In this document: one piece after another, positions 7,401-62,659 of the stretch | How positions within the stretch are numbered: position 1 is the first letter of the stretch | How the letters are laid out: every line of letters begins with the position of its first letter | Origin: Alligator mississippiensis | Taxonomy: Eukaryota; Chordata; Crocodylia; Alligatoridae | Direction: 5' to 3' | Length of the DNA stretch: 64,000 bases | Assembly: GCF_030867095.1 (NCBI RefSeq) | Contig: NC_081828.1 | Coordinates: 217,031,978 to 217,095,977 of the forward strand | Translations under genes and position numbers: made by a program | The notes under the pieces: generated by a model | What the model was told of the DNA's origin: nothing | The model's input: the letters and a program-made list of their open reading frames with translations, nothing else | Database searches by the model: none

Positions 7401-8465
7401 CTTTCCAGAGACTGATCAATAATCTGCTGCAAGGATGTGAGCAGTTTGCCATGGCTTACATCGATGACATCGCCATCTTCAGTCCGGATTTCGAGTCGCA
7501 CCTGACTCACCTGACCACCGTGCTAGGTAAGATCAAGCAAGCTGGTCTTACGGTGAAAGCCAAGAAGTGCCAGTGGGCTCTATCGGAGGTAGTGTACTTG
7601 GGTCATCGTGTGGGTGGAGGTCAGATTGCTCCCTTGTGGGACAAGATCGAGGCCATCAAAGACTGGCCGCCTCCACAGACCAAGATGCAAGTCAGAGCCT
7701 TCCTTGGCCTGGCGGGTTACTACCGAAGATTTGTCCCAGGGTTTGGAGCAACCGCAGCCCCACTGCACGAGCTGACCAAGAAGGGCAGCCCGGACCCGGT
7801 GGTCTGGAAGCAGGGGTGCCAGGAAGCGTTCGACGCCCTCAAGGCTGCCCTGGTCAAACAACTGATCCTGAAGGCACCGCTCCAGGATAAACCCTTCTAC
7901 GTGGCAACGGATGCCTCCGACGTGGGACTGGGAGCTGTGCTCTTACAGGAGCACCAGGAGACACGGCACCCCGTGGTGTACCTCAGCCGGGAGCTAATCC
8001 CTCGGGAGCGAAACCTGTCCTCCATCGAGAAGGAGTGCTTGGCCATCGTCTGGGCCCTGAACAAGCTGAAGCCCTATCTGTGGGGACAACAGTTCACCGT
8101 CCTGTCGGACCATGCCCCACTGCAGTGGCTGCAGACCATGCACAACACCAATGCCAAGCTGCAACGTTGGTCTTGGCAGCTGCAGGAATTTAATTTTACG
8201 GTCCAACACATAAAAGGAAGCCTGAACGTGATAGCGGACACCTTGTCACGAAAGGACTCTGGGTAGCGAGTCCTTGGGACTTGGGACTAGTGAGGAGATC
8301 ACTAGCATAAGACTGCCATCAGGTTTTATGGTTTCTATCTGTTATTGTCTTAACTTGTTCCATGTTCCAGGTTTTTCCCTTTTCCTTCTTCTGGCATCCT
8401 GTGGGAACTCCCTGACCCGACACGCCCGGACCCACGGCCCTGAGAGGCCCCGTGTCCGAGCTTGT

Positions 8466-15212: not shown

Positions 15213-15308
15213 GAGTTTGAGCAAGTTCAGAAAATCCTCACTGCCCGCAGAGCCCACGCGCCTGGGCAGCAGGGAGGGGGCCGTGCCCAGGGCGGGGAAG
15301 CTGCAGCC

Positions 15309-15376
15309 GGGGAAACCCCAAGTGCCTTGGCCATGACTCATCCCTCCTTGCACAAGGAACTGGACAACATATAAAA
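15309..15376 (+). promoter_or_regulatory. Cathelicidin 1 core promoter: kappaB, AP-1, C/EBP, TATA
   Basis: Within 68 bp there is a perfect kappaB palindrome GGGGAAACCCC (15309-15319), an AP-1 site TGACTCA (15334-15340), a C/EBP-like TTGCACAAG (15348-15356) and TATAAAA (15370-15376). The ATG at 15420 follows. These are sequence matches only. Such a set fits inducible expression in myeloid cells. Confidence 0.7.
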
Positions 15377-15419
15377 GGGCTTTCCTGCAGCCAACGGCAC
15401 AGCCCAGACCCACGGCACC

Positions 15420-16848
15420 ATGCAGACCTGCTGGGTCATCCTGCTCCTGCCCCTGCTCGGGGCAGCCAGCACCGAGCTGCCCACCCCTGGCACCGACCCA
15501 CCGCAGCCCACGCCGACCTACGCCCAGGCCCTGGCCACGGCTGTCGACGTCTACAACCAAGGGTCCAACGTGGACTTCGCCTTCCGGCTCCTGGAGGCAG
15601 AGTCCCGGGATGACTGGGTGAGCATCAGCCTGCAGTGCCCAAGCCCAGCCCCGTGCGGGGTCACAGCTGGCGGGAAGGGGCTGCCCAGCCCAGGGGACAG
15701 GGTGTGGGCATCTCCTCCATGCACCAGGACCTGTAGTGTCCAGCCGTGGCTCACGGCAGCCCCACGGGCACTGGGGGTCCTGACCCAGTCGGGGAGGGTC
15801 CCTTGGGGCTCCCTGCAGCACACACTGGGCCGGGCGTCCAGGCCGTGGCGGGCACCGGGGCAGTGCTCCCTGCCAACCCCTCAGCACCCCCGGGCTCCTG
15901 TCTCCCCAGGACGTGAGCACGGATCCCCTGCGGCAGCTGGAGTTCACCCTGAAGGAGACCGAGTGCCCCGTGGGCGAGGACCAGCCCCTGGACCAGTGCG
16001 ACTTCAAGGATGGCGGGGTGAGGAAGGCACAGGGTGCAACCCCTCCTTTGCTCAGGGGCCGGGTGCACGGGTGGGCGGCACTGGACCTCAGCATCATCCC
16101 TAGGCTAAGGCCCCTCTGGGTGCAGCTGGGCGGTGGGGAGAGGGTCTGCACCACTGGAGGGTCCAGCCTGCCTGGCCAGCGGGGACGAGTGGGCGCCGTG
16201 GGGGATTTGCACGGACCTTGCCCCACCAGAAACATGTCGTGGAGGCGCCTCTGGCCTCGCAAGCTGGGGCACAAGCCCCATTCCCACAGTGACATGCCGT
16301 CCCACGGCCAGTGGCACCACGCTCGTCCCACATGGACCCTGCGACTCCCCAGTGCTCTGGCCCCCAGGCTGGGGTCTGGCTGGGCGGACCCGGCGCTGCC
16401 CCGCGTGGCCGTGCCGGAGGTGCCACGTGTGGCGCTGAGCTGTTCTCTCCTCGCTGCCGTGGCAGGCGGTGCTGGACTGCACAGGGACCTTCTCCTGCTC
16501 CGAGGCCTCGCTCATGGTGCTGGTCACCTGCCAACCCGCCGAGCCCCCGGTGAGTGTCTGTGCCCCCTCCAGCGCCCGCCCTGGCCCCCGGCTCCTGCTC
16601 AGCAGGGTCCCGGCACGTGTGCCCGGGGCTGGGCAGGGAGGGCTGGTGCCGAAGGGACCCCTGGGTGGGCAGAGGTGGGTCCTGCCCTGGAGACCCTCAT
16701 GGGCGCCTCTCTCCTGCAGCCCGACCGCGTCCGCAGGGGTCTATTCAAGAAGCTGAGGAGGAAAATCAAGAAGGGCTTTAAGAAAATCTTCAAGCGCCTG
16801 CCTCCCGTCGGTGTCGGTGTCTCCATCCCACTCGCAGGAAAACGGTGA
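15420..16848 (+). CDS. Cathelicidin 1 precursor (4 exons, 172 aa)
   Basis: Host-defence peptide precursor, secreted or stored in granules. Exons: 15420-15617, 15910-16017, 16466-16549 and 16720-16848, all GT-AG and all phase 0. Exon 1 (66 aa) gives a signal peptide starting MQTCWVILLLPLLGAAS, then the start of the cathelin domain (YAQALATAVDVYNQG). Exons 2 and 3 (36 and 28 aa) complete cathelin, with Cys85 and Cys96, then Cys107 and Cys124, plus an extra Cys113. Exon 4 starts PDRV; elastase-type cleavage after Val134 would free a 38-residue peptide beginning RRGLFKKLRRKIKK and ending SIPLAGKR. It has 15 Lys/Arg and no acidic residue. The ATG follows a TATA box by about 45 bp; AATAAA lies 172 bp after the stop. 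The peptide matches the alligator CATH36-type peptide from memory. Gene 2 is its inverted copy. Confidence 0.95.
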
Positions 16849-17019
16849 GGAGCCCGGGACGGCTCCATCTGCACCTCCAGGACCCCCGGACCAGGCGCTC
16901 GGTGCCCTGGGAATGGGGCCCGGCGAACCCAGCCCTGCCTCTGAAGAGCCGTGGCGGGGCTGGGGTGGGCAGGGAGGGGTGGCAGGTTCGGGGCTGCACG
17001 CTCCTGTTCCTCTTGTCAC

Positions 17020-17025
17020 AATAAA
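17020..17025 (+). terminator. Polyadenylation signal of cathelicidin 1
   Basis: AATAAA, 172 bp after the stop codon, inside the duplicated arm. Confidence 0.75.
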
Positions 17026-17494
17026 TGGTGAATGTAATAACTCGGTGGTGTGCCCTTGCTGCGCGGCCTGTACTTTTTCCTTGGGGAAGGGCGGCGGAGG
17101 GCAGAGACCCACCCTGCTGCGGGCACCACGACCCCAATTGTGGCTCCATCCTGTTAAGTGGCCCCTGAACAGCCCACGGCTCCACGCTTCACCCCCATTC
17201 GGGCCAAAGGAGCGGCCCTGGTGCAGCCCTGCCGTTTGCCGTGTTGGTTTAATTTCTTTCCTGCCATCTCGTCTCGCTCCATCTCTGCACGGCGGTCCGG
17301 CATGAAGCATCGACGCTGTCCCTGCAAAGCCGGGCTCTCCCCGTCGGCATGCAGAGCGAACGCTCTGGGCTGTACGTCGGGCTGGACCCAGCACCGATGC
17401 GGGGACATCTCCTAAGGGAGCTCCTTCCACTCACACAGCACCCAGCTCCCAAGGGCACGTGGACCCGTGTCCTGCCGGAGACGTCCCCTGGGAC

Positions 17495-17705
17495 CCGGGT
17501 TGTTGGTTGTAGCCGGGTCGGTCTACGGACACGGGCAGGAGCGGTTCTTTGGGTAGACGTGATACCTCTTATTAGACCAGCTAATAAAAAAGTCTCCCAT
17601 TGCCTGAAGAAGGGTGTTTGGGCCCGAAAGCTTGCCAAGAACTTTTTTCCAACTATGTAGCTGGTTTAATAAAAGATCTCACATTTACCCCAAGAAGCTT
17701 GCCTT
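17495..17705 (+). mobile_element. Penelope-like repeat fragment with hammerhead-like core (copy A)
   Basis: Contains GTTGTTGGTTGTAGCC, a CTGAAGA...GAAA core (17604-17629) and TTTAATAAAAGATCTCAC. The left part (TGATACCTCTTATTAGACC) is an inverted copy of the right part, so the core is flanked by inverted repeats. The repeat family recurs at 44.25, 53.3, 57.5 and 57.7 kb. Confidence 0.55.
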
Positions 17706-19030
17706 CCCCGGGACCTTGGACTTTTGCATCGTGCCTTCCTCGAGGGCAGCGATGGATCGCACCCCACGAAGGAGCGGGCTGCTGCCGAGCCCAGCCCCGG
17801 GGACCAACACGCTTGCACAGAAGCAGGTTGAGAAGCTTTCACAGGAGGCTTCAGGCCAACAGGGAAGGAAATGGGTTTGGAGGCAGACGGGGGTTAAATC
17901 TCAGCGGCAATTCAAGCCAGCTCATCTCAGGGTTAATAACTCACAGGAGGCAAACCTGAGAGTCTGTGGGCAGAGGCAATTTAGATAACGAGGGTCAGGA
18001 GGGCTGGAAATTCGGGTGGACCAGGGGACTTGCAAAGCGCCACTGTTTTGCCTCGGGAAGGTTCAAGGAAGTGCAAAGAATAAATAGGATGAACAAAAAA
18101 GCCGCAGCCAGGATTGGGATGTCTTTCCTGAGCACAAGGAGATGTACGAAGGCTTGCAGGGTAAATGCTAAATCCACAGACCCAGCTGTGTCATGTCGCC
18201 CGCCCCGTAATGCTTCTGCGGCCTGAAGGGCCAGTTAAAAAAGAATTGCACCGCATGGAAGAGGCATACATGATAGGACCGGATGACCTCCAGAGAGCCC
18301 TTCCAGGCCTTGTTTTTTGGGAGCTGATAGCCAAGGGGCAAGAAGAAGGGCAGGTGGGGAAGCTCGCCCCTTTACTTACCCCTTACAGGAGGGGAAACGT
18401 GCCAGGAAATGCAGCGTAGACCTGCGCACGGGAATGAAAGCACAGCTGGAGCTTCCAGTGGGGGCTCTGAGCTGCACATCTGCAGTGGTGTCGCCAGCTG
18501 TGTTCAGTTTAAAGGAAGGGTCAGGAGCAATTAGGGTGAGGAAACCCCCCAGAGGGGCACTGAGCTGTATTAAACACCCCGGGAAGATAAAAGTAAATCA
18601 GCTGTGATGTGTCACGGGGATAAAACAGGCATTTGAATGGCTGCGTGGGGCTGAGCATCGGATAGGACGCGTTCTGCGGCGGGAAAGGCCAGCAGGGCCA
18701 GGAGCACGGACAGGGATGCCATTCAATTAGAGGAAATGCAAAGCGGCTGGGACGGCAACACGTCTTCGGCAGTCCCTCGCAGCGGAGGGCAATCACCTTC
18801 CATGCATGTCTTATTTGAGGGTCCGAAGATGGCTGACGACCGGGATCGACAGACCCGGGGGGCACTCGGGCACATGTTTCCATGGGGGTGGGTGGCTCCT
18901 GATTCTTGATTCAGTCCCAGACACGCTGCTTTTCCCGCTACTCTTGCTGTCATGAGGTTTCAAAGTACTGAGACCCCTGCAGCACTCTTCCTCCATGTGG
19001 GGCGGTCCTGGGCCATCGTCTCCCATGAGC
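17706..19030. other. No gene recognised
   Basis: Unique-looking sequence without exon, promoter or clear repeat signals. It ends at the CR1 3' tail at 19031. Confidence 0.5.
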
Positions 19031-20006
19031 TGATTCATAGATTCATAGATTCATAGATGTTAGGGTCGGAAGGGACCTCAATAGATCATCGAGTCCGACC
19101 CCCTGCATAGGCAGGAAAGAGTGCTGCGTCTAGATGACCCCAGCTAGATGCCTATCTAACCTCCTCTTGAAGACCCCCAGGGTAGGGGAGAGCACCACCT
19201 CCCTTGGGAGCCCGTTCCAGACCTTGGCCACTCGAACTGTGAAGAAGTTCTTCCTAATGTCCAGTCTAAATCTGCTCTCTGCTAGCTTGTGGCCATTGTT
19301 TCTTGTAACCCCCGGGGGCGCCTTGGTGAATAAATACTCACCAATTCCCTTCTGTGCCCCCGTGATGAACTTATAGGCAGCCACAAGGTCGCCTCTCAAC
19401 CTTCTCTTGCGGAGGCTGAAAAGGTCCAGTTTCTCTAGTCTCTCCTCGTAGGGCTTGGTCTGCAGGCCCTTGACCATACGAGTGGCCCTTCTCTGGACCC
19501 TCTCCAGGTTATCCGCATCCCTCTTGAAGTGTGGCGCCCAGAATTGCACTCTGTACTCCAACTGCGGTCTGACCAGCGCCCGATAGAGGGGAAGTGTCAC
19601 CTCCTTGGACCTATTCGTCATGCATCTGCTGATGCACGATAAAGTGCCATTGGCTTTTCTGATGGCTTCGTCACACTGCCGGCTCATGTTCATCTTGGAG
19701 TCCACTAGGACTCTGAGATCCCTTTCCACCTCTGTGCCACCCAGCAGGTCATTCCCTAGGCTGTAGGTGTGCTGGACATTTTTCCTCCCCAGGTGCAGCA
19801 CTTTGCATTTCTCCTTGTTGAACTGCATCCTGTTGTTTTCTGCCCACTTGTCCAACCTATCCAGGTCTGCCTGCAGCTGTTCCCTGCCCTCCGGCGTGCC
19901 CACTTCTCCCCATAGCTTTGTGTCATCTGCAAACTTGGACAGAGTACACTTCACTCCCTTGTCCAAGTCACTGATGAAGACATTAAAGAGTATCGGTCCA
20001 TGATGT
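19031..20006 (-). mobile_element. CR1 LINE, family A, 5'-truncated
   Basis: Minus-strand RT end with one long open frame: LFNVFISDLDKGVKC, FADDTKLWGEVGT, MQFNKEKCKVLHLG, then FRLDIRKNFFTVRVAKVWNG. It stops after LAGVI. The 3' tail is TCTATGAA repeats at 19033-19060. Little frame damage in the kept part suggests a fairly young copy. Confidence 0.88.
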
Positions 20007-20271
20007 TGGCCTTGAGGATGTCCTCGAAGTGCTTTCTCTGCCCTCCTCTTGAGCATGCGCCTTGGGAGAGAGAAGCGCACTTCCAGAGTCTGGAGTCAAT
20101 CCCCTGGATGACATGAGCTTGTTTTATCCAGGAACGCCCCAAGGGCTGATAATGAGACAGTGTTTGGGATGTTCATTGAGAAAAGACCAAAAACCTGGTA
20201 CCTCGAACATCATCGCAGGACCCAAAATGGCCCCAGCCAGCTGGCAAAGGGTCCCGGGAGAGGTTGCTAGT

Positions 20272-20390
20272 CCTGTTAGTCTGAGGTCAGTCAGAAGGCA
20301 GAGGAGAGATGCGCCTATATACAGACTGACTAACAGATACAGAGAGAGAGCACAGGCTTTCGTGGGCAGAAGCTGGGGAACATTTCTCAC
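20272..20390 (-). mobile_element. Short interspersed repeat, second Penelope-like type
   Basis: On the minus strand TGCCCACGAAAGCC is followed by TATCTGTTAGTCAGTC, a repeat tail common in turtle and crocodilian DNA as far as I know. Family assignment is tentative. Confidence 0.35.
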
Positions 20391-20404
20391 CATGGTAAAT
20401 CGAC

Positions 20405-22078
20405 CCCAGGAAATGATGACTCCAAGATCCCTTTCTGCCTCTGTGCTCTCAACAAGGGAGTTTCCCATCTTATAAGTGTGCTGCCGGTTACTACTGCCCA
20501 AGTGCAGCACCCTGCACTTGTCAGTATTGAAACACATCCTGTTTTTGTTAGCCCTCCCCTGCAACCTATCCAGGTCTTGCTGCAGTCTTTCCCTCCCTAC
20601 TAGCGTGCCCACCTCTCCCCATATTTTGGTATCATCAGCAAATTTGAACAGGTTGCTTTTCACCCCGTCGTCCAAATCACTGATAAAGAAATTGAACAGC
20701 GCGGGCCCAAGGACCGAGCCCTGGGGGACTCCGCTGCCCACTTCCCCCAGGTCGAATATGACCCGTCCACCACCACCCTCTGAGTACGACCCTTCAGCCA
20801 ATTCGCAATCCATCTGACCGTGTAGGCATCGATGCCACAGTCACCTAGTTTTTTAATGAGGATGGGGTGGTCAACAGTGTCAAAGGCCTTGCTGAAGTCC
20901 AGAAAGACTACATCCACGACGACACCTGCATCCAGTGCTTTTGTGACCTGATCATAAAAGGCAATCAGGGTGGTCTGACATGACCTGCCCCTAATGAAAC
21001 CATGCTGGTTGCCCTTGAGCATCATCCCCGATGCCAGCCCATCACAGATGTGCTCCTTGATGATCTTCTCAAAGAGTTTCCCCCGGATTGAGGTAAGACA
21101 GATGGGCCTGTAGTTGCCCGGGTCCTCCCTTCTCCCTTTCTTAAAGATGGGGACCACATTGGCCATCTTCCAATCATCCAGCACCTGGCCCGAGCACCAC
21201 GAGCGCTCGTAAAGCCGTGCCATGGGCCCTGCAATAACCCCTGCTAGCTCCCTCAACACCCTGGGGTGGAGAGCATCTGGACCTGCTGACTTGAACATGT
21301 CCAGCCCCTCCAGAAGCACTCTGACCCGGTCCTTCCCAACCTTAGGTCTGGAGGCGTTCCCCTCGAGTCCGTCTTGAATCCCGGTGGGGGAGTCCTGGTC
21401 CCTGCACAAGAAAACAGAGGTGAAGAATTTGTTAAAGAGGTCTGCCATCTCCTCTGGCACAACCACCAGATTGCCCAGCACATCTTGCAGGGGCCCCACG
21501 TTTCCCGGTGCCTTCTTCATCCTCCCTATATATTTGAAAAAGGACTTTTTATTATCTTTGATCTTGGACGCTAGTCCTAGCTCTATGTCCGCCTTAGCTT
21601 TCCTAACAGCCCCCCTACAGGCCCGAGCAGTGGAGGTGTACTCCTCTTTGGAGATTGACACACCACTTCCACCAGGTGTATGCCGCCTTTTTGGCAACCA
21701 GGCATTCCCGGACGTCCTTGGTGAGCCAGGGAGGCTTTTGGGCACTCTTGTCCCCCTTGCTTCTTGTTGGGATTGTCACCCCTTGGGCCCTGAGTATCGT
21801 CTCCTTAAGGAACGACCACTCTTCTTGGGCACCGAGCTCCCCTGCCCTCGAGGACCCCAGCGCCTCTCCCACCAATCTCCTCAACTCGTTGAAGTTGGCC
21901 CTCTTGAAGTCTAGGGCTACCGCCTTGCTGCAGGCCCTTGACACCCTGCGCTGGATGGTGAATTCCAGCAAGCGATGATCGCTGTCACCCAGGTGGTCAA
22001 GGGCCTGGAGCCCCCTCACCATGTCGTCGCCTGTGGCCAGGACCAGGTCCAACAGGGCATTTCCTCTGGTGGGAATGT
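20405..22078 (-). mobile_element. CR1 LINE, endonuclease end plus RT, truncated both ends
   Basis: Minus strand from 22078: DLVLATGDDMVRGLQ and LGDSDHRLLEF (endonuclease end), then [58 protein letters not shown] and [11 protein letters not shown]. Coding stops near 20405 without a 3' tail. At least two frame breaks are visible (near 21650 and 20750). Confidence 0.85.
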
Positions 22079-22084
22079 CGGTAT

Positions 22085-22229
22085 TGTCATAAAATCACAG
22101 ACAATGAGGGCTGAAGGGATCTCAGGAGATCACATCTAGTCCAACCCCCCGCTCCAAGCAGGACCAGCCCCAGCTACAGCATGCCAGACACGGCTTTGTC
22201 TAGCGGGTCTTAAAAGCCTCCAAGGATGG
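22085..22229 (-). mobile_element. Older CR1 3' fragment, first half
   Basis: CATCTAGTCCAACCCC and TTAAAAGCCTCCAAGGATGG are minus-strand CR1 3' blocks. The fragment is interrupted at GATGGAG and resumes at 23973. Confidence 0.8.
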
Positions 22230-23972
22230 AGGTGCCAGGTAAGGTGGGGCCTCTGCAGGACACGCTAGGAAATCTGGTCATCTCACCTGACGCTAAAGCT
22301 GACATATTCAACAATTTCTTTGCCTCCGTATTTCTGAGGAGGGACCCGGATATCTCCCCGACTGGCCCCCCCAAGGGCCCGGTGGGTGGCACACCCAGGC
22401 CAAGGGTTAATGAGGACCTTGTCAGGGAACTTCTGGAGGGACTGGATGTATTTAAATCCACAGGTCCTGATGATCTCCACCCCAGGGTGCTGAAGGAACT
22501 AGCAGGGGTCATTGCGGGACCTCTGGTGCAGCTCTACGAGCACTCACAGCGCTCGGGCAATGTGCCAGAGGACTGGAAAAGGATCAATGTGGTCCCCATC
22601 TTCAAAAAAGGGAGGAAGGAGGATCCACGAAACTATAAACCCGTTAATCTTACCTCGATCCTGGGTAAGCTTTTTGAGAGAATTACCCTGGCGCATGTCC
22701 ACGAGGGGTCGGCAGGGGAGGTTATGCTTAGGGGCAGCCAACACGGGTTCATTAGGGGCAGGTCTTGTCAAACCAACCTGGTCACCAAGTCCTTGGATGC
22801 AGGTGTCGTGGTGGACGTAGTCTTTCTGGACTTCAGGAAGGCCTTCGACATGGTCTCTCACCCCAATCTCAGTAAGAAACTAGGAGACAATGGTGTCGAC
22901 ACCTACATGGTCAGCTGGGTCACTAACTGGCTGAAGGGCCGCACCCAGAGAGTGGTGGTGGATGGGTCTTATTCGACCTGGAGGGCTGTGGGCAGTGGGG
23001 TCCCCCAGGGCTCGGTCCTTGGACCCTCACTGTTCAACATCTTCATCAGTGACTTGGCCGAGGGGTAAAAAGCACCTTGTCCAAGTTTGCAGATGACACT
23101 AAGATGTGGGGGGAAGTGGGCATGCTGGAAGGGAGAAATAGGCTGCAATTGGACCTAGACAGGTTCCAGGGGTGGGCGGATGAGAACAGGATGGGTTCAA
23201 CACGGACAAGTGCAAGGTGCTGCACCTGGGGGGGAAGAACCAGCAGCAGACCTACAGGCTGGGGAACTCCCTTCTCGTCAGTGCAGAGGCAGAAAAGGAT
23301 CTTGGAGTCATCATTGATGCCAAAATGAACATGGGCCGACAGTGTGGGGATGCGGTCAGGAAGGCCAACCGCACCTTGTCGTGCGTCCACAGATGCATCT
23401 CGAGCAGGGCCAAGGAGGTGATCCTCCCCCTCTACGCGGCACTGGTCAGGCCGCAGGTGGAGTACTGCGTCCAGGTCTGGGCGCCGCACGTCAGGAGGGA
23501 TGTGGGCAGCATGGAGAGGGGCCAGAGGAGGCCACCCGCATGATCGGGGGCAGCAGGGCAGGCCCTGCGAGGAGAGGTGATGGGACCTGAACCTGTTCAG
23601 CCTCCACAAGAGAAGACTGAGGGGGATCTAGTGACCTGTTACAAACTGGTCAGGGGGGACCAGCAGGCATTGGGGGAGTCCCTGTTCCCCCAAGCACTCC
23701 CAGGAGTGACTAGAAATACCGGTCACAAGCTGGCAGAGGGTAGATTCAGGCTAGACATCAGGATGCACTACTTCGCAGTCAGGGCGGCTAGGATCTGGAA
23801 CCAACTTCCAAGAGAAGTGGTGCTGGCTCCTACCCTGGGGGCTTTAAGAGGAGGGTGGATGAACACTTTGCCGAGGTCGTTTGATCCCAGTGCTCTTTCC
23901 TGCCATGGCAGGGGGTCGGACGTGATGATCTCCTCAGGTCCCTTCCGACCCGACCAGCTATGAAACTATGAT
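22230..23972 (+). mobile_element. CR1 LINE, family B, inserted in an older CR1
   Basis: Plus-strand CR1 from the pre-RT linker ([17 protein letters not shown]) through RT ([59 protein letters not shown]) to the LINE end (RLDIRMHYFAVRAARIWNQL). The tail is CTATGAAACTATGA, which differs from family A. The GATGGAG motif is present on both sides, as expected of a target duplication. It has frame breaks near 23067, 23200 and 23540. Confidence 0.87.
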
Positions 23973-25511: not shown

Positions 25512-25726
25512 TGCAGACAGCAGGGCTGCACTGGGGCCGCTCCTTTGGCCCGAATGGGGGTGAAGCGTGGAGCCGTGGGCTGTTCAGGGGCCACTCAACA
25601 GGATGGAGCCGCAATTGGGGTCATGGTGCCCGCAGCAGGGTGGGTCTCTGCCCTCCGCTGCCCTTCCCCAAGGAAAAAGTACAGACCGCACAGCAAGGGC
25701 ACACCACCGAGTTATTACATTCACCA

Positions 25727-25732
25727 TTTATT
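25727..25732 (-). terminator. Polyadenylation signal of cathelicidin 2
   Basis: AATAAA on the minus strand in the same context as in gene 1. Confidence 0.75.
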
Positions 25733-25913
25733 GTGACAAGAGGAACGGGAGTGTGCAGCCCCGAACCCGCCACCCCTCCCTGCCCACCCCAGCCCAGCCC
25801 AGCCCCGCCACGGCTCTTCAGAGGCAGGGCTGGGTTCGCCGGGCCCCGTTCCCGGGGCACCGAGCGCCTGGTCTGGGGGTCCTGGAGGTGCAGATGGAGC
25901 CGTCCCGGGCTCC

Positions 25914-27316
25914 TCACCGTTTTCCTGCGAGTGGGATGGAGACACCGACACCAACGGGAGGCAGGCGCTTGAAGATTTTCTTAAAGCCCTTCTTGATTTT
26001 CCTCCTCAGCTTCTTGAATAGACCCCTGCGGACGCGGTCGGGCTGCAGGAGAGAGGCGCCCATGAGGGTCTCCAGGGCAGGACCCACCTCTGCCCACCCA
26101 GGGGTCCCTTCGGCACCAGCCCTCCCTGCCCAGCCCCGGGCACACGTGCCGGGACCCTGCTGAGCAGGAGCCGGGGGCCAGGGCGGGCGCTGGAGGGGGC
26201 ACAGACACTCACCAGGGGCTCGGCGGGTTGGCAGGTGACCAGCACCATGAGCGAGGCCTCGGAGCAGGAGAAGGTCCCTGTGCAGTCCAGCACCGCCTGC
26301 CACGGCAGCGAGGAGAGAACAGCTCAGCGCCACACGTGGCACCTCTGGCACGGCCACGCGGGGCAGCGCCGGGTCCGCCCAGCCAGACCCCAGCCTGGGG
26401 GCCAACGCAGCCCGGAGCACCGGGGAGTTGCAGGGCCGGCCCATGGGGGACATGCAAGGTGCCCCTAGCCACGGGGTCAGCACATCGCAGTGGGGACGGG
26501 GCTGTGTGCAAGTGCCCCCACGCTGCCCGCCTGTCCCCTCTGGCCGGGCAGGCTGCACCCTCCAGCGGTGCAGACCCTCTCCCCACCGCCCAGCTGCCCC
26601 CAGCACCCGGAGCTTGAAGGGGCTTAGCCTGGGGGCGGCATTGCCACCCAGTGCCGCCCACCTGGGCACCCAGCCCTGTGCAAAGGAGGGGTTGCACCCT
26701 GTGCCTGTGCCTTCCTCACCCCGCCATCCTTGAAGTCGCACTGGTCCAGGGGCTGGTCCTTGCCCACGGGGCACTCGGTCTCCTTCAGGGTGAACTCCAG
26801 CTGCCGCAGGGGATCCTTGCTCGCGTCCTGGGGAGACAAGAGTCCAGGGGTGCTGAGGGGTTGGCAGGGAGTGCTGCCCCAGTGCCCGCCACGGCCTGGA
26901 CACTCGGCCCAGTGTGTGCTGCAGGGAGCCCCAAGGGACCCTCCCCGACTGGTCCAGGACCCCCAGTGCCCATGGGACTGCCGTGAGCCACGGCTGGACA
27001 CTACAGGTCCTGGTGCATGGAGGAGATGCCCACACCCTGTCCCCTGGGCTGGGCAGCCCCTTCCCGCCAGCTGTGACCCGCACGGGGCTGGGCTTGGGCA
27101 CTGCAGGCTGATGCTCACCCAGTCGTCCCGGGACTCTGCCTCCAGGAGCCGGAAGGCAAAGTCCACGCCAGGCCCTTGGTTGTAGACGTCGACGGCCGTG
27201 GCCAGGGCCTGGGCGTAGGTCGGCGTGGGCTGCGGTGGGTCGGTGCCAGGGGTGGGCAGCTCGGTGCTGGCTGCCCCGAGCAGGGGCAGGAGCAGGATGA
27301 TCCAGCAGGTCTGCAT
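25914..27316 (-). CDS. Cathelicidin 2 precursor (inverted copy of cathelicidin 1)
   Basis: Four phase-0 exons on the minus strand: 27119-27316, 26720-26827, 26213-26296 and 25914-26042. Exon sizes equal those of gene 1 (198, 108, 84, 129 nt) and the precursor is again 172 aa. By eye it differs from gene 1 at seven residues, all in the signal peptide and cathelin part: V6I, S49P, N50G, V68A, T70K, E89K and P130L. The 42 residues of exon 4 are identical, with one silent change. Introns 1 and 3 have nearly the same length as in gene 1 (291 and 170 nt); intron 2 is 423 rather than 448 nt. The extra exon-3 Cys113 is kept. The gene faces gene 1 tail to tail across about 8 kb of LINE-rich spacer. 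Role as for gene 1, doubling the locus dose of the same peptide. Confidence 0.95.
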
Positions 27317-27359
27317 GGTGCCGTGGGTCTGGGCTGTGCCGTTGGCTGCAGGGAAGCCC

Positions 27360-27427
27360 TTTTATATGTTGTCCAGTTCCTTGTGCAAGGAGGGATGAGT
27401 CATGGCCAAGGCACTTGGGGTTTCCCC
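27360..27427 (-). promoter_or_regulatory. Cathelicidin 2 core promoter: kappaB, AP-1, C/EBP, TATA
   Basis: Mirror image of the gene 1 promoter: GGGGTTTCCCC (27417-27427), TGAGTCA (27396-27402), CTTGTGCAA (27380-27388) and TTTTATA (27360-27366) on the plus strand. All four sites and their spacing survive, so both copies kept their control region. Confidence 0.7.
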
Positions 27428-27743
27428 GGGCTGCAGCTTCCCCGCCCTGGGCACGGCCCCCTCCCTGCTGCCCAGGCGCGCGGGCTCTGCGGGCAGTGAG
27501 GATTTTCTGAAGTTGCTCAAACCTCTGGCATTTGGGGACAAAGTCCAAATTTGTGTCGCAGCTCGAGGGTGGTGAGGGCAGCCCCAGGGCGATGCTCTGT
27601 GGCTGGGGTCTGCATGGCCAGGGATGGTGCGGAGCTGGGGGTCATCTCTAGATGAAACCTGATGACAATATGTTATATCTTCACAATATAAGACGAGTTG
27701 AGACCTCAGATGTGTTGCCTGATCCACACACCAGACCAACGGG

Positions 27744-39394: not shown

Positions 39395-41458
39395 ATTATA
39401 CACGGGTTCATTCGAGGCAGGTCCTGTCAGACCAGCCTGGTGGCCTTCTACGGCCAGGTCACAACATCCTTGGATGCAGGTGTCGCAGTGGACGTAGTCT
39501 TTCTGGACCTTAGGAAGGCTGTCGACACTGTCTCTCACCCCATCCTCATTAAAAACTAGGGGACTGTGGTGTTGACACCTACATGGTCAGATGGGTCGCT
39601 AACTGGCTGGAGGCCCGCACCCAGAGAGTCGTGGTGGATGGGTCGGTCTCGACCTGGAAGGGTGTGGGCAGTGGGGTCCCGCAGGGCTCGGTCCTTGGAC
39701 CGATACTCTTCAATGTCTTCATCAGTGACTTGGACGAGGGAGTGAAGTGTACTCTGTCCAAGTTTGCGGATGACACAAAGCTATGGGGAGAAGTGGACAC
39801 GCTGGAGGGCAGGGAACAGCTGCAGGCAGACCTGGACAGGTTGGACAAGTGGGCAGAAAACAACAGGATGCAGTTCAACAAGGAGAAATGCAAAGTGCTG
39901 CACCTAGGGAGGAAAAATGTCCAGCACACCTACAGCCTAGGGAATGACCTGCTGGGTGGCACAGAGGTGGAAAGGGATCTTGGAGTCCTAGTGGACTCCA
40001 AGATGAACATGAGCCGGCAGTGTGACGAAGCCATCAGAAAAGCCAATGGCATTTTATCGTGCATCAGCAGATGCATGACGAATAGGTCCAAGGAGGTGAT
40101 ACTTCCCCTCTATCGGGCGCTGCTCAGACCGCAGTTGGAGTACTGCGTGCAATTCTGGGCGCCGCACTTCAAGAAGGATGCGGATAACCTGGAGAGGGTC
40201 CAGAGAAGGGCCACTCGTATGGTTAAGGGCCTGCAGACCAAGCCCTACGAGGAGAGACTAGAGAACCTGGACCTTTTCAGCCTCCGCAAGAGAAGGTTGA
40301 GAGGCGACCTTGTGGCTGCCTTTAAGTTCATCACGGGGGCACAGAAGGGAATTGGTGAGGATTTATTCACCAAGGCGCCCCCGGGGGTTACAAGAAACAA
40401 TGGCCACAAGCTAGCAGAGAGCAGATTTAGACTGGACATTAGGAAGAACTTCTTCACAGTTCGAGTGGCCAAGGTCTGGAACGGGCTCCCAAGGGAGGTG
40501 GTGCTCTCCCCTACCCTGGGGGTCTTCAAGAGGAGGTTAGACGAGTATCTGGCTGGGGTCATCTAGACCCAGCACTCTTTCCTGCCAATGCAGGGGGTTG
40601 GACTCAATGATCTACTGAGGTCCCTTCCGACCCTAACATCTATGAATCTATGAATCTATGACTCTATGCATCTAGGATGGGTTTCAACACTGACAAGCTC
40701 AAGGTGCTGCACCTGGGGAGCAAGAACCAGCAGCAGACCTACGGGCTGGGGAACTCCCTTCTCGTCAGTGCAGAGGCAGAAAAGGATCTTGGAGTCATTA
40801 TTGATGCCAAAATGAATATGGGCCGACAGTGTGGGGACACGGTCAGGAAGGCCAACCGCACCTTGTCGTACATCCACAGATGCATCTCAAGTAGGGCCAA
40901 GGAGGTGATCCTCCCCCTCTATGCGGCACTGGTCAGGCCACAGCTGGAGTGCTGTGTCCAGGTCTGGGCGCCGCACTTCAGGAGAGATGTGGGCAGCATG
41001 GAGAGGGGCCAGAGGAGGCCACCCGCACAATCGGGGGCAGCAGAGCAGGCCCTACGAGGAGAGGCGACAGGACCTGACCCTGTACAGCCACCACAAGAGG
41101 AGGCTGAGAGGGATCTAGTGACCTGTTACAAACTAGTCGGGGTGGACCAGAAGGCATTGGGGGAGTCCCTGCTCCCCCGAGCACTCCCAGGAGTGACTAG
41201 AAATACCGGTCACAAGCTGGCAGAGGGGAGATTCAGACTAGACATCAGGATGCACTACTTCACAGTCAGGGCGGCTAGGATCTGGAACCAACTTCCAGGA
41301 GAAGTGGTGCTGGCTCCTATCCTGGGGGGCTTTAAGAGGAGGCTGGATGAACACCTTGCCAGGGTCGTTTGACCCCAGTGCTCTTTCCTGCCATGGCAGG
41401 GGGTCGGACGTGATGATCTGCTCAGGTCCCTTCCGACCCGACCAACTATGAAACTATG
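39395..41458 (+). mobile_element. Composite CR1: family B split around a family A copy
   Basis: 39395-39600 reads [19 protein letters not shown] and VVFLDLRKAVDTVSHPILI in family B style. From about 39600-39700 to 40670 the sequence is family A with a long open frame: [46 protein letters not shown], ending in TCTATGAA repeats at 40640. Directly after, 40676-41458 is family B again (GFNTDKLKVLHLGSKNQQQT to RMHYFTVRAARIWNQLPGE) with the CTATGAAA tail. About 200 bp of family B are missing at the junction. Confidence 0.82.
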
Positions 41459-43883: not shown

Positions 43884-44249
43884 CTGACAGTGACAACTCC
43901 CTTGTGGTGAGCTTTCCTCCCAGCCGCATGGAGGCTCATTATAACAGGGTTGTGCTGCGTCTTAAAGGGGAGTAAAACGGTTTGATCCCAGTGAATCCTG
44001 CCTTTTGCTTGCCAGCGTCTATCCACTGTCGTTTGTGTCCTGACTTGTCCCCTTTAAACTCTGACATACGTTACTCTGCCTCTGAAGCCTCTGGTCAGCA
44101 GTGTGCAGAGGCGTGAGTGCAAGGTGGACGGCATCCCTTTGCAGCACTGCACGGTGTGTGAGCAGCATAGGGGACGTTGCGGACATCATAGAAGGCATCT
44201 CGCCACCGTGCTATGAGCAGGACATCCTCCATCCCGGGCAAGGTTGCAC

Positions 44250-44400
44250 CAACTTCTGGGGGTTTGTGCCCGAAAGCGTGCAATTAAAGACATTTTTTTG
44301 CAAAACTCTTGTTGGTCTAATAAAAGATATCACCTCTACTGTGAGTCCCGATTGCCTTTTCCTCTAGACCAATACGGCTACAACCTGGATACCTGGCTTC
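44250..44400 (+). mobile_element. Penelope-like repeat fragment (copy E, core 5' part missing)
   Basis: Starts inside the core (TTTGTGCCCGAAAGC at about 44263-44277). It continues with TTGGTCTAATAAAAGATATC and ends with the inverted terminal motif ACCAATACGGCTACAACC. Confidence 0.55.
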
Positions 44401-50828: not shown

Positions 50829-53800
50829 TTATCCCAAAAAAAAAGGGGCAATTTTGAGAGCACCATTAAGAATTTTTTTCCAAAATTTCCTCCTCGTGAC
50901 GAGCTCAGGCTGGAAGACAGGGAGAAGGCAGCAGGGTGAGCAAGTACATGCAAATTAAAAATTAAAGACGCCCATCTGTGATCCCTGCTCTACCCAGCGT
51001 TGAAAACCAAGTGCATGGCCGTGGCAGCCACATTTCTAGGCAGGCAGCGGTGAGGGAGTCCACTGACTTCCTGGCTCGTTATAATCTACCTGAGCCCTTC
51101 TACACTCTTCACTCTGCCGGTGTTAACGAACCCCTCCCCTTTTCAATGGACTCGATGTTGCACCCATCACACTAGCCGTTCTTCTGCATTTCTGCTGTCT
51201 GTTTGCTGCTCCTGGTGTGGGAGCTCCTATCCCACAGCCCTGCAGACTGCTGCTAACTCTAGTTAGAAACATTAACTCAGGGGTGAAAATATTATCTCAG
51301 GTGAACTTCAGCTCAGGTGTGGAAATAACTTCCAGTGAAGCACTGAATGCACTGTCCAGATGCTCAAGAAGGCTAGATTTTGTTTTCCGAATCTGAAAAA
51401 GGGATGTCCATTTAATTCTAATGACTGGAGAGCTAATGAAGCAACACCTTTTGATTATGGAGGTGTCTAAGACTTGGCTAGAGAAAGCCCTGGCTGGGAT
51501 GATGTAGCTGGGCACAGTCCTGCTTGGAGCAGGGGGTTGCACTAGATGTGCCCTCCTGGGGTCCCTTCCACCCTCGTTGTCTATGATTTTTGCCTAGATT
51601 ATTGTGGTTTTTATACACAGTATATGATATAGCAAATGAATGCACATTCTAATATATTTATATTCGTTTTTGCTCCAATCTTAAACTGAATCATACAGCC
51701 CTAGGCCACTAGCTTATGGTTTTAGCTTCTTTTTAGCTAGATAAAAAGAGGTGCTATGTGATATGTGATGGCGCACCATATCCTCTGCACCCCCCTTTTC
51801 CAAATCCTAGATCGTGACCTCATGAGGTCCCATCCAACCCGCAACTTTCTGTGGATCTATGAATCCACCCGGGGCAGGAGGCATTGGTCCATGAGCTCCC
51901 GGCAGATGGAGATGCACACTCTGCCCGGGGATCATTCAGTGCCGTGACGTGCCAGGCCGGGATCTCCACGGGGTAAACCCTCGGACCGTGACTCACCTCC
52001 TGAGATGTATCCTCGCATTTAACAGCAGTGACAGGGGGCTTTTTCCCAGCGGTGAAGAGCCCGGAGCAGTCTTTAACAAGCTGCAAAGGAGACACAAGAC
52101 ACCCCAGCTTCAAGGAGCAGTTCCCAGGGCTGCCCAAAACTCTGGTTTCCACCCCATTGCTCCTGTGGTCCCCGGTTCCCCATCAACCCAAGGGACTGTC
52201 CACAACCGGACTGTGGTCCTCTGCACTGGACCGCCGTGTGATGCCCCGCAGGTCACTAGTGCAGCGGGAGGTCGGCACGCTCCTTCCTGAGCCAGGCTTG
52301 GGCACTGCCCTGGGTGGGAAGGGCTGGATCCTGGTGGTTGGTGAGAGAGAGACCAGGAGAGGGGAGATCTGGGCGCCTTACCCCGTTTTCCTTGAAGTCG
52401 CATTGCTTCAGGTTGCCTTTCTGGGCTATGGGGCAGACCGTCTCTTTCACGGAGAACTTCAGCGGTTGAGCAGCTTGGGAAGACGGGTTCTGGGGAGAAA
52501 GTCAGAGGACAAGGCAGATGAACTCCTACCCAGCCTTTATATAGGACCACGCTGCAGGCAGGTCTTGGCCCCTCTGTGCCGGGTCACGTCGTAGACATGG
52601 GATCCTAGGAAAGTAGGGTAGGCAGGACCTCAAGAGGTCATCTAGTCCTGACTAACCCAGCCCAGCCCCGTGTCTGTATTTCTGGGAGCTGAGGGCTGAG
52701 GTTGTGGGCTGGGGCTCGTGGCTCGGGGTGCCCCCAACTTTGGCAGCCTGGCATGAGATCCCCCCAGACTGCAGTGGATGTCTAATGCATTGGGTCACAC
52801 TACCTGAGAGGCAATGCTGTCACTTGGCAAACAATTAGCAACCTTGATAATGAATTCACAAGACTTTTCATGTTGAATCTTTTCTTCCTACCCAAAAAGA
52901 AATCCATGGTGCGATGAGAGGCAGGGAGGGCTCTTAATCCAAGGTTTCCCTTTGGAAGCCTTCCTAGGCCTTCACAAATCCCTTTCTTTCTAACGAGGAG
53001 ATCTTATTCATCTATCTGAGCTGGGACACGCTCCTTCAGGCCGGCCGAGACCTGAACCCCTTTGCAGAGCTGCCCGGTTTGGGGATTTTATCAGCCCCAG
53101 CTCCCGGGGTCTTGTGGCTGCATGAGACGCTCAGCTCCCATTTCTTCATAAGGGGTCTGTTATTTCTCACCTCCACCCTTTCAGCAAAGAGCTTGCAGCT
53201 ATTACCCTCGAAAGTGCAAAAACTAGAAGGCAAAGAACCGAACCCCAGCCCCAAAATGCACGCCATTCGTTGGCAGCCAGTGTTCGTTGGGTAAATGTGA
53301 TATCTTTTCTTCGACCAGCTAAATAATGGGAAAAATTGTTCTTTGCAAGCTTTCAGGTACAAACACCCTTCTTCAGGCGCAGGGAGCATCTGTCGTTGGT
53401 GCGTCCTTAGACCAACACAGCTACAACCAACAACGCCACTAATCGATGCATGCATCCCCTCAATTTAGGGCCAATTCCTGGCTTTTGAGGGCCAGTGACC
53501 AGCCACGCTGATGTGCACTATGCACTGTACCGTACAGAGGGTGAGTTAGACCCGGCTGCTTGTATCGCACACCCTGCTGCTGTACCATTAGGCTTCCTAA
53601 TTGTGCATGACTTCACATGCTTCCTTGGCAGCCAGACAAGCTGCTCTTAAGGACTAGGAAGCGGTTGCATCAGGGCAACAGGAAATGTCTCGGTGGTTGC
53701 TACTCACCCACATTAAAGCACTCTTGAAATGCCCACTTCTGCCATGCTGCTTCTGGCAAATCAAGGCGCCTTGCAAACGAATGACCCCCCTGGTTGTGGC

Positions 53801-54174
53801 TTTCCCCTCGTCCCTGCGTGCCAGGACTGTGTGGGATCCGAGCACCCGTTTGCAAAGCGCCCAGCACAAAGCACTGGAAGAAAATCAGCAGTGATCCCGA
53901 ACAGGCGGGCTGGGAAGCACGGCTAATGCAAGAGCCGGCAGCGGGGAGCGGGGGTCTCGGGGGCACTCACCCATTCCGACTGGGGCTCAGCCTCCAGGAG
54001 CCGGTAGGCTTGGGGCAGGCCCGACTCCTGGTTGAAGATGTCCACAGCGGTGGTGACGGCATCCTCGTAGCCTGCCTGGGACTGGGATTGGGTTTGGGCT
54101 TGGGCTTGGGCTTGGGCGGTGGCCACGGCCGTGGCCACCCCAAGGAGCAGCAGCAGGCACAGGCAGGTCTCCAT
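50829..54174 (-). CDS. Cathelicidin 4 precursor (4 exons, 158 aa)
   Basis: Exons on the minus strand: 53971-54174, 52382-52489, 51997-52080 and 50829-50909, phase 0 throughout. Exon 1 (68 aa) starts METCLCLLLLLGVATAVATA, followed by a low-complexity QAQAQAQTQSQSQ tract encoded by a short tandem repeat, then cathelin (YEDAVTTAVDIFNQESG). Cysteines 87, 98, 109 and 126 form the usual two pairs. Exon 4 begins PELV; cleavage after Val136 gives a 22-residue peptide starting TRRKFWKKILNGALKI and ending APFFLG, with six Lys/Arg and no acidic residue. The C-terminal Gly could donate an amide. The end of this exon crosses a run of nine A (+ strand) that keeps the frame to a TAA. A TATA box lies 60 bp upstream and AATAAA 130 bp after the stop. 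It resembles the alligator TRRKFW-type cathelicidin known to me. Confidence 0.93.
51440..51590 (+). mobile_element. CR1 3' end in intron 3 of cathelicidin 4
   Basis: TGGGATGATGTAGCTGGGCA, TTGGAGCAGGGGGTTGCACT and GTCTATGATT. Confidence 0.75.
52605..52680 (-). mobile_element. CR1 terminal fragment in intron 1 of cathelicidin 4
   Basis: GGACCTCAAGAGGTCATCTA and GTCCTGACTAACCCAGCCC. Confidence 0.6.
53268..53455 (-). mobile_element. Penelope-like repeat fragment with hammerhead-like core (copy B)
   Basis: Lies in intron 1 of cathelicidin 4. On the minus strand: GTTGTTGGTTGTAGCTGTG, then core CTGAAGA (53376-53370), a 15-nt stem-loop with AGG/CCT ends, GAAA (53354-53351), GCTTGC, then GAAAAGATATCACATTTACC. 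Confidence 0.55.
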
Positions 54175-54233
54175 GCTGCACGCAGATGTGAAGCAGGAGG
54201 GCAGTTCTGCTCTGGGAGTGCAAGGGCGGCCCC

Positions 54234-57400: not shown

Positions 57401-57489
57401 AGGGAACAGGATGGAAGAATGGTTTCCCTTGACTCACACAGCTGTCCTGTTAATGCATTGCAATGCAGCCTTTTGACCATCTTTAATTC

Positions 57490-57605
57490 TCCCTGAGCCT
57501 GAGGAAGGGTGCATGTTCCTGAAAGCTTGCAGAAAAAGATCATTTTTGTGCAATTTCTTAGTTGGTCTAATCAAAGTTATGCTCTCTGAACCAAGAGACT
57601 GCCTG
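57490..57605 (+). mobile_element. Penelope-like repeat fragment with hammerhead-like core (copy D)
   Basis: CTGAGGA (57499-57505), AGGG...TCCT stem, GAAA (57521-57524), GCTTGC, then TTAGTTGGTCTAATCAAAG. Confidence 0.55.
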
Positions 57606-57674
57606 CCTAGGGTTTTCCATCTATTGACTCCTCTGTGAAATACAAACTTTCATTTCTACCCAGGAGAACTTTTA

Positions 57675-57835
57675 CAATCTTTTCTCCAATGCCTGATGAA
57701 GGGTGTTTGTGCCCAAAAGCTTGCAATTAAAGACATTTTATTGCAAAAATCTTTTTGGTCTAATCAAAGATATCATCTCTACTACAAGCCCTGATTGCCT
57801 TCTTCCTCTAGGCCGATACGGCTACAACCCTGATG
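57675..57835 (+). mobile_element. Penelope-like repeat fragment with hammerhead-like core (copy C)
   Basis: CTGATGA (57693-57699) is followed by the same stem-loop and AAAAGCTTGC, then TTTTTGGTCTAATCAAAGAT. It ends in the inverted terminal motif CCGATACGGCTACAACC. Confidence 0.55.
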
Positions 57836-57934
57836 CATTACAATGCAGGACTCACTGTTTGAATGACTCTGCAGTTACCTCCACCTAGTCCTCCAGGACT
57901 CTGGCATGAAACTAGCCAGTTTTGCACGCCCCCC

Positions 57935-60467: not shown

Positions 60468-62659
60468 CTAGCCGCCTAAGATGTAGGGTAGAAATCTAAG
60501 CACTGTCCTTCCTACCTTCGGCCAGTTCACTCTTTTGACGAGCTGAGGCTGGAGAGAGGGAGAAGACCGAAGGTGAGCGAGGCCGTGCAGGATGCAGGAC
60601 GTCCCACCCAGGGCAGTGCTAACGGGAGACGGGCTGTGCCCCAACCCATTTCCAGTCTGGACAGAGCAGCAAGCAGAGGGCAGGGGGCACGGGTCCGGGT
60701 CACAGAGCAGGAGAGGGCTGGTCGGGGGTCCTGGACGGGGATCACCCCTGGGCTTTAGGGGGAGCAGGGTCGTGTCTGCCGGAAGGATGGTGCAGCTGGC
60801 ACGCGTCCTATCACCTCCGGCCATGCATGCCTCTGGCCCGTGGACCTGTCTATAAATAAGACCTGAGTCTGGTGCCTGTGGGTGCAGGGCGAGGGGGGTC
60901 AGAGCCTCCACCACGGGGAGGTAGTGGGGATGCCCCCCCCCCCCCCCGAGACCTGCTTCCTGCCCACAGGGCATGTTGGGGGGGACGTGGGTCCTGTTGG
61001 GCACTCGGCTTCGTGGCCCTCAACCCCCATCCTGTCCTAAGTCCCTGCTGGGGACTAAAGGATTTGACAGCCAGGGTCACGGGGCAGGATGCTTGGCCAA
61101 CGCGGGCCAGGCATCCAGAGCTGCACCCTCGTGTTGGGACAGTCCAGCACCGGGACGGGCCATGAAGTGAGGGACTCCCACCCCGGCCTGGCCCCGCGGG
61201 GACCGGACAGGACCTGCCGGCATCACTTACCTCCTGACCCGCGTCCTCGCACTTGGCCGTGATGACCGGGGGCTCCTTCTCCTCGGCATAGAGGCCTTTG
61301 CAGTCTTTGACCAGCTGCAGAGGAAAGATGAAACCCCTCCGCTGTCAGCCTCCGGACCCCCACGTCCGGCCTCTCCCCCGACCAACCTGCTTCCCACGGG
61401 GGTCCCGGCACAATTCACGCAATTCCTCTTGCATCACAGATTCAGCGTCTGCCCCGTGTCGCAGGGGGCTGCGGCTGGCTGGGCACGTGGGTGCAGGTCC
61501 CACCCCCCCGGGGCTCCCCCTGCCCGTCCCAGGACAAGGGTCCTGGCTAGAGGGTCTGGGCCCTTTGCTCAGGGTCAGACCAGTTGCCACGCTTGGGGTC
61601 AGGCAGGAAAGTGACCCCAGGGTCAGGTTGGTACAGACTGGGGGCTCCTGGGGCGCCCGTGGAAATGTCCCCGTGCAGCCGCAGACTCTCACCCCCTTGT
61701 CCTTGAACGGACACTGGCTGACGTCGCGTTTCTCCGACACCAGGCACTCCGTCTCCTTGATGGAAAACTTCAGCGGCTGCGCGGGCTGGGAGGACGGGTC
61801 CTAGGGGGGTTCAAGGACACAACACCATCCATGGAGCCGGGGACCCAGACCGCTCCAGGACTTATTTCAGCCTTTCCTGTCCGTTTCGGTGCCCTCCAGA
61901 CCCCCGATAACCATGGCAGCCCCTTGAGCAGAGGCATGCTCAAACTCCCCGCACCCCGGGCATTTCTCCTGCCCGCGGCCAAGATCTCAGGACGTGGCTG
62001 GAGGTTTGGGGGCAGCCTCATACTGCCGAACCCAAGTCACCCAGACCACTGCGGGAATCAGGGCAGGTCTCAGGGCAGAGGATGTTAGTCCAGCAATGCC
62101 TTAGAGCAGACCTTGGCATAGCGCGAGTTTATCCCGATGGTGCTTGCCCCCTCGAATGGGACAGCAATGTTTCCCTTGCCCAGGCTTGGCTAATGTGGAG
62201 GATAACCCTCCTCCAGGCAGGACCCGGGATGCGCACTGCCCCTGGAAGAAGGGGGTGCTGAAGTCTCCCCCTCCCCACCCTGGGCCCTGGGACCGGGAGC
62301 GTCTCTGAGCAGGACGCAGCCTCCCGTTGGGGAAAGAGTCCGGCCAAAGTGCTGCTGTGCGTGCACCCGTCGGTGCGCAGACACGGCCAGGCTGCACCGT
62401 GCAGACGGGAGCCAGGGCCCCGGTCCTGCCCCAGCATGCAGCCGCGTGCGGGGGCACTCACCCATTGGGGCTGGGGCTCAGCCTCCAGCAGGCGGTAGGC
62501 CTGGGGCAGGCCCGACTCCTGGTTGTAGGTGTTGACGGCCGCGGCCAGAGCCTCCTGGTAGCTGCTCAGGGCTGGAGCTGGGGGTGCGGGCAGGGCCACG
62601 GCCACGGCCACGGCCACGGCCGCCCCCAGCACCAGCAGCGCTCACCAGCAGGGCTGCAT
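60468..62659 (-). pseudogene. Cathelicidin 5, intact exons but TGA at codon 6 (156 codons)
   Basis: Exons on the minus strand: 62462-62659, 61693-61800, 61231-61314 and 60468-60548, all with GT-AG borders and phase 0. Exon 1 starts M-Q-P-C-W, then TGA (62644-62642), then continues in frame A-L-L-V-L-G-A-A-V-A. Gene 4 has TGC (Cys) at this codon, so one base could explain the stop. No other in-frame ATG exists in exon 1. The signal region also carries a (Val-Ala)n run from a 6-bp repeat. Cathelin cysteines 85, 96, 107 and 124 are all present. Exon 4 starts PQLV; the peptide after Val134 would be 22 residues, KRVNWPKVGRTVLRF to YILGG, with five Lys/Arg. The KRVNW start is typical of some reptile cathelicidins. 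The TATA box is GATAAAA rather than TATAAAA. It is either a recent pseudogene, a null allele or an assembly error. Confidence 0.8.
61535..61680 (+). mobile_element. Family C CR1-like trace in intron 2 of cathelicidin 5
   Basis: CTGGCTAGAGGGTCTGGGCC and GGGGTCAGGCAGGAAAGTGA match the 39.1 and 43.1 kb copies. Confidence 0.5.

What the first reader, a model, noticed from the sequence alone, without database searches (positions are those of the whole stretch)
57499..57530. Hammerhead-ribozyme-like core in a dispersed Penelope-like repeat
Four copies share CTGANGA, a stem-loop of the form AGGG(n)CCT or CCC, GAAA (AAAA in one), then GCTT and GC. This is the order of a type I hammerhead: CUGANGA, stem II, GAAA, a two-pair stem III (A-G/C-U) with U before the cleavage point, and a short stem I (TGC before, GCA after). 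Copy D (57499-57530) and copy B (53376-53345, minus) pair A-T, G-C, G-C in stem II. N is A, G or T among copies, as the ribozyme allows. Minimal hammerheads of this kind are known in Penelope-like elements, where they act as dimers.
Basis: partly seen in the sequence, partly recalled or inferred. Interest (0 to 1): 0.75.

Follow-up and report, generated by a model that had tools for sequence, protein, structure and literature searches.

The report
Minimal hammerhead motif in retroelement repeat
Five scattered remnants of one mobile element in an animal (probably reptile) genome carry, in three cases intact, the sequence signature of a tiny self-cutting RNA (hammerhead ribozyme) of a kind already known to ride in Penelope-like retroelements, so it is real but expected.

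Summary
Five copies of one dispersed repeat lie in the window: A 17604+, B 53376-, C 44258+, D 57499+, E 57693+. A, B and D satisfy a complete minimal hammerhead descriptor. They are the only hits in 64 kb, where shuffles give 0.013. C has lost CTGANGA. E carries AAAA, i.e. a changed G12, and should be inactive. The motif is the best-conserved stretch of the repeat (87% pairwise identity, against 60% in the tail and 47% upstream). There is no two-sided covariation and no Rfam hammerhead match. D and E appear to be one insertion: two head-to-tail units 194 nt apart, flanked by a 16-bp direct repeat. The 3' end is an A/C-rich tail about 115-130 nt after stem II, like the internal reverse-transcription start of the Anolis Penelope element. 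Best reading: decayed, PLE-type, probably non-autonomous insertions with minimal type I hammerheads, originally acting as dimers or with protein help. This class is already described as widespread in animal genomes. No PLE protein is present and no cleavage was tested. New members of a known kind; low to moderate interest.

The parts
57499..57530 (+). Copy D, minimal hammerhead core: CTGAGGA, A + GGG..CCT stem II, GAAA, GC-TT; predicted cleavage between 57528 and 57529
   Evidence: Descriptor hit, model hit 52.5 bits (model built from these copies)
57693..57724 (+). Copy E, same motif, G12 replaced by A (AAAA); stem I TGC/GCA; predicted inactive core
   Evidence: fails the GAAA descriptor
53345..53376 (-). 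Copy B, intact core CTGAAGA..GAAAGCTTGC
17604..17635 (+). Copy A, intact core CTGAAGA..GAAAGCTTGC; sits between two inverted tail segments
44258..44281 (+). Copy C, damaged: stem II/GAAAGCGTGC half present, CTGANGA missing
   Evidence: partial model hit 44258-44279, E 0.92
57469..57832 (+). D-E insertion: two head-to-tail units, cores 194 nt apart, ending at the A/C-rich tail
   Evidence: D and E units align from 57470 through the core into the tail
57453..57468 (+). Left target-site duplication ATGCATTGCAATGCAG
   Evidence: 16 bp, 1 mismatch with 57833-57848; such a pair in 8 of 1500 random placements
57833..57848 (+). Right target-site duplication ATGCATTACAATGCAG
57810..57828 (+). Tail end AGGCCGATACGGCTACAAC of copy E
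   Evidence: Motif shared with C, B-left and A-left
44366..44384 (+). Tail end AGACCAATACGGCTACAAC of copy C
53409..53427 (+). Tail end at the left end of copy B, inverted relative to the core
17506..17578 (-). Whole tail at the left end of copy A, inverted relative to the core; pairs with the right arm
   Evidence: RNA fold z -2.7
17643..17705 (+). Right tail arm of copy A

Best explanation
The repeat is a set of old, short insertions of a Penelope-like (or PLE-mobilised, non-autonomous) retroelement. Its conserved head is a minimal type I hammerhead ribozyme with almost no stem III. In the active master element the RNA would fold as stem I (consensus AUUGC/GCAAU), CUGANGA, one extra A, stem II (GGGU/GCCC), GAA and A-G-C-U. 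The self-complementary AGCU pairs with the same motif of a second unit, in tandem on one transcript or in trans, forming a shared stem III. Cleavage would fall between GCUU and GC and would separate units of a multimeric transcript. Reverse transcription starts at the A/C-rich tail 115-130 nt downstream and copies back through the core. Shown here: family, core, conservation peak, tandem units, flanking duplication and shared tail end. Inferred: origin from a PLE, dimer action, cleavage. The copies in this window are probably inactive or very weak.
For: Complete descriptor met by A, B and D only, 0.013 expected by shuffling. The motif is exactly the best-conserved 34-column window of the repeat. 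The only freely varying core position is N7. The consensus folds by itself into stems I and II with an open core. D-E are tandem units with a 16-bp flanking duplication and a shared tail end. The Anolis PLE has a hammerhead just at its ORF start, tandem units, and RT starts 111-118 bp into the ORF in an A/C-rich stem-loop (PMC11167929). Minimal type I hammerheads without helix III are reported as dispersed motifs and in PLE pseudo-LTRs in many animals (PMC7761336; PMC6155905). Penelope insertions are reported in crocodilians (PMC4316615).
Against: No Rfam hammerhead hit. No two-sided covariation. Stem I is only 2-3 bp in the copies. There is an extra A between A9 and stem II. No PLE reverse transcriptase or GIY-YIG domain was found in the frames scanned, so PLE origin rests on anatomy. 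No sequence outside the window could be compared. Native folds of B, D and E disfavour the hammerhead.
Confidence: 0.8

Rival explanations
1. A short non-autonomous retrozyme-like element: tandem units of about 194 nt, each with a hammerhead, processed to small circular RNAs and reinserted by a PLE enzyme.
For: D-E spacing of 194 nt falls in the reported size of animal retrozyme units, 150-450 bp, dimers and up, with larger TSDs (PMC7229834); a 16-bp flanking duplication; no coding sequence.
Against: Retrozymes carry canonical type I hammerheads with loop-loop contacts; these are minimal ones. Only one dimer is seen, and a deleted PLE body would look the same.
Confidence: 0.15
2. A dispersed repeat of another kind (SINE or foldback element) that contains a hammerhead-like string by chance, preserved only because the copies are related.
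For: All copies are homologous; no covariation; no Rfam hit; copy A is a long inverted repeat.
Against: 0.013 expected per 64 kb; the conservation peak coincides with the motif; tandem and tail anatomy match a biochemically studied PLE.
Confidence: 0.08
3. A domesticated, still active ribozyme at one of these loci, as reported for intronic hammerheads in amniotes.
For: A, B and D keep an intact core; for A a hammerhead-compatible fold costs only 0.6 kcal/mol over the best fold.
Against: Copies look randomly decayed, stem I is 2 bp, and stem III is two pairs with no loop, so a monomer is unlikely to cleave well.
Confidence: 0.03

Closest known systems
Minimal type I hammerheads of Penelope-like elements (Cervera and De la Pena 2014; Lunse, Weinberg and Breaker 2017; reviewed in PMC7761336)
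   Same: Core letters, short stem II, near-absent helix III that invites dimers, tandem occurrence, dispersed non-coding copies
   Different: Only 2-3 bp of stem I left in the copies here; extra A before stem II; no PLE ORF seen. The two primary papers were not held; their content is taken from reviews and own knowledge
Poseidon PLE of Anolis carolinensis (PAc, PMC11167929)
   Same: Hammerhead close upstream of an A/C-rich reverse-transcription start, tandem units, both strands primed, which would explain inverted tails at copy ends (inference)
   Different: PAc encodes RT and GIY-YIG; the copies here are under 400 bp. No PAc sequence was available to align
Metazoan non-LTR retrozymes (PMC7229834)
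   Same: Short tandem units with type I hammerheads and TSDs
   Different: Retrozyme hammerheads have a fuller helix III and/or loop contacts; many copies per array

Membership tests
Minimal (PLE-type) type I hammerhead ribozyme | Core C-U-G-A-N-G-A ... G-A-A with A15.1-U16.1 and a non-G at position 17 | tested here: met
   Met in A, B, D; not in E (G12 to A) or C (5' core lost)
Minimal (PLE-type) type I hammerhead ribozyme | Stem II of at least 3 bp closed on the core | tested here: met
   GGG(U)/(G)CCC, 93.8% of cells pair with one extra A before the stem
Minimal (PLE-type) type I hammerhead ribozyme | Stem I | tested here: met
   Weak: 2 bp in A, B, D and 3 bp in E; 5 bp in the consensus
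Minimal (PLE-type) type I hammerhead ribozyme | Paired (compensatory) changes in the helices | tested here: inconclusive
   None on both sides in four related sequences; too few to decide
Minimal (PLE-type) type I hammerhead ribozyme | Self-cleavage at the predicted site | not testable with these tools
   Needs RNA assay
Canonical hammerheads as modelled in Rfam | Match to an Rfam hammerhead model | tested here: not met
   No match at gathering score or at E up to 10; minimal PLE variants lack helix III, which may be why (own inference, no positive control run)
Penelope-like element | ORF with telomerase-like RT and GIY-YIG endonuclease | tested here: inconclusive
   None in the frames scanned; RVT_1 hits in the window belong to other elements; copies are too short to hold it
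Penelope-like element | Tandem or partly tandem units with hammerheads in the repeats | tested here: met
   D-E unit
Penelope-like element | Insertions ending at an internal A/C-rich RT start about 110-130 nt after the hammerhead | tested here: inconclusive
   Shared end CGGCTACAACC in C, E and, inverted, in A and B; position similar to PAc, but no direct alignment
Metazoan retrozyme | Canonical type I hammerhead with loop 1-loop 2 contacts in 150-450-bp tandem units | tested here: not met
   Unit length fits (194 nt), but stem I is 2-3 bp with no loop 1, so no such contact can be drawn

The most novel reading that the evidence does not exclude
D-E is a retrozyme-like, non-autonomous tandem element of 194-nt units whose two minimal hammerheads pair with each other through AGCU on one transcript, mobilised by a PLE enzyme in a reptile lineage where only isolated PLE remnants had been described.
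Probability: 0.12. Interest if true: 0.5.

Novelty: new member of a known kind. Interest (0 to 1): 0.3.

Why it matters
The role of minimal hammerheads in PLEs is described as still unknown (PMC7761336), and in the one PLE tested in vitro cleavage needed the element's protein and was not required for insertion (PMC11167929). A family whose hammerhead is much better conserved than its other sequence argues that the ribozyme mattered to the spreading element. D-E, with a flanking duplication and two units, gives a compact natural test construct for the dimer model. Otherwise it adds copies to a class already estimated to be very large.

Tried and rejected
Chance origin of the motif: rejected by the shuffle test. 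Outside copies: a core-plus-GAAAGCTTG pattern in viral contigs and in prokaryote genomes gave only unrelated sequences, which served as negative controls and score at most 17.4 bits against 52-58 for the repeat. Tail motifs and a recalled relative's motif gave nothing in viral contigs. Searching papers for repeat letters found nothing relevant. No host genome is held. Conserved coding in the copies was considered: the frame from ATG in E is open for about 30 codons but closes in A, so rejected. Target-site duplications for A and B: only a 10-bp match for A, not better than chance, and none for B. The dimer energies printed for D are wrong because an upstream CTGA was taken; they are not used.

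Full report
What is there. The sequence at 57499-57530 reads CTGAGGA AGGGTGCATGTTCCT GAAA GCTT GC, as stated. The same string recurs at 17604(+), 53376(-) and, with AAAA for GAAA, at 57693(+). A profile made from these and a fifth tail match finds five copies of one repeat: A 17586-17719, B 53394-53270, C 44237-44362, D 57485-57616 and E 57676-57805. There is also an inverted partial copy at A's left. C has lost CTGANGA.

Chance. CTGANGA followed by GAAA is by itself common (7 found, 3.7 expected). With stems I, II and III and the UH rule added, only A, B and D remain, against 0.013 expected in shuffles. The copies descend from one source, so the support is for one family-level event.

Structure. 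Four copies align over 38 columns with 27 invariant. In the core only N7 varies freely (A, A, G, T), the position hammerheads leave free. Leaving that A unpaired and pairing GGG(U) with (G)CCC gives 93.8%. An extra nucleotide in a natural hammerhead core has a published precedent (title of reference 28 in PMC6155905; its exact position, next to A9, is from own knowledge). Changes are one-sided only, so covariation is neither shown nor excluded. The consensus folds on its own into a 5-bp stem I and 4-bp stem II with the core open. Natural copies B, D and E prefer other folds by 4-9 kcal/mol and A by 0.6. Stem III is the palindrome AGCU; as a monomer it has two pairs and no loop, so a dimer is the natural reading, as reported for minimal type I hammerheads (PMC7761336).

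Models. Rfam gives no hammerhead match at its cut-offs or at E up to 10. A model built from the four copies finds those four at 52-58 bits and nothing else above 17.4 bits, in the window or in the chance matches from viral and prokaryote contigs. It is not independent evidence.

Conservation. Among A, B, D and E the motif has 87.3% pairwise identity, the tail 60.4% and the upstream part 47.4%. The motif is exactly the top 34-column window. That suggests the motif was under constraint while the element spread; with four copies this is suggestive, not proof.

Element anatomy. D and E align head to tail from 57470, next to the end of a 16-bp direct repeat (57453-57468 and 57833-57848, one mismatch). 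Comparable repeats turn up in 8 of 1500 random placements. E ends in CGGCTACAACC, an end also found in C and, inverted, at the left ends of B and A. So D-E is most likely one insertion of two units 194 nt apart, reverse-transcribed from the A/C-rich tail. In the Anolis Penelope element, units are tandem, the hammerhead sits at the ORF start, reverse transcription starts 111-118 bp into the ORF in an A/C-rich stem-loop, and both strands are cut and extended (PMC11167929). The inverted tails of A and B fit priming on both strands (inference). In A the two tail arms make a long hairpin with the core at its tip (z -2.7).

What is missing. No Penelope reverse transcriptase or GIY-YIG domain was found in the frames scanned, no genome is held and no relative was found outside the window. 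PLE origin therefore rests on anatomy and on reports of Penelope insertions in crocodilians (PMC4316615). The host is inferred to be a reptile from cathelicidin genes and CR1-like elements (own knowledge), not shown.

Verdict. The paired-change argument is not supported, and at least two of five copies should be dead. The kind is known and abundant, so interest is modest; D-E as a bounded two-unit insertion is the part worth a bench test.

Noticed in passing
window 4560-8263 (+): LTR-type retroelement with a SAP domain and integrase upstream of reverse transcriptase and RNase H, in overlapping frames. Integrase before RT is unusual for Gypsy-type elements (compare Gmr1-like elements, own knowledge), unless two copies are fused.
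   Followed up: partly
window 26627-27361 (-), 62132-62641 (-), about 53970-54175 (-): Cathelicidin host-defence peptide genes: Pfam hits for the first two; the third by eye from its signal peptide and propeptide start.
   Followed up: partly
window about 14994-17430 and 25564-27641: Long segments repeated in inverted orientation that include a cathelicidin-like frame (15375-16100 + and 26627-27361 - start with near-identical protein), suggesting a recent gene duplication.
   Followed up: no
window 9585-10769 (+), 19133-23065, 39553-40563 (+): Several broken LINE (probably CR1) endonuclease and reverse transcriptase frames.
   Followed up: partly
window 57454-57467: The insertion site of D-E contains a perfect 14-bp palindrome TGCATTGCAATGCA, with ATT on both strands, the motif the Anolis PLE prefers to cut.
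   Followed up: partly
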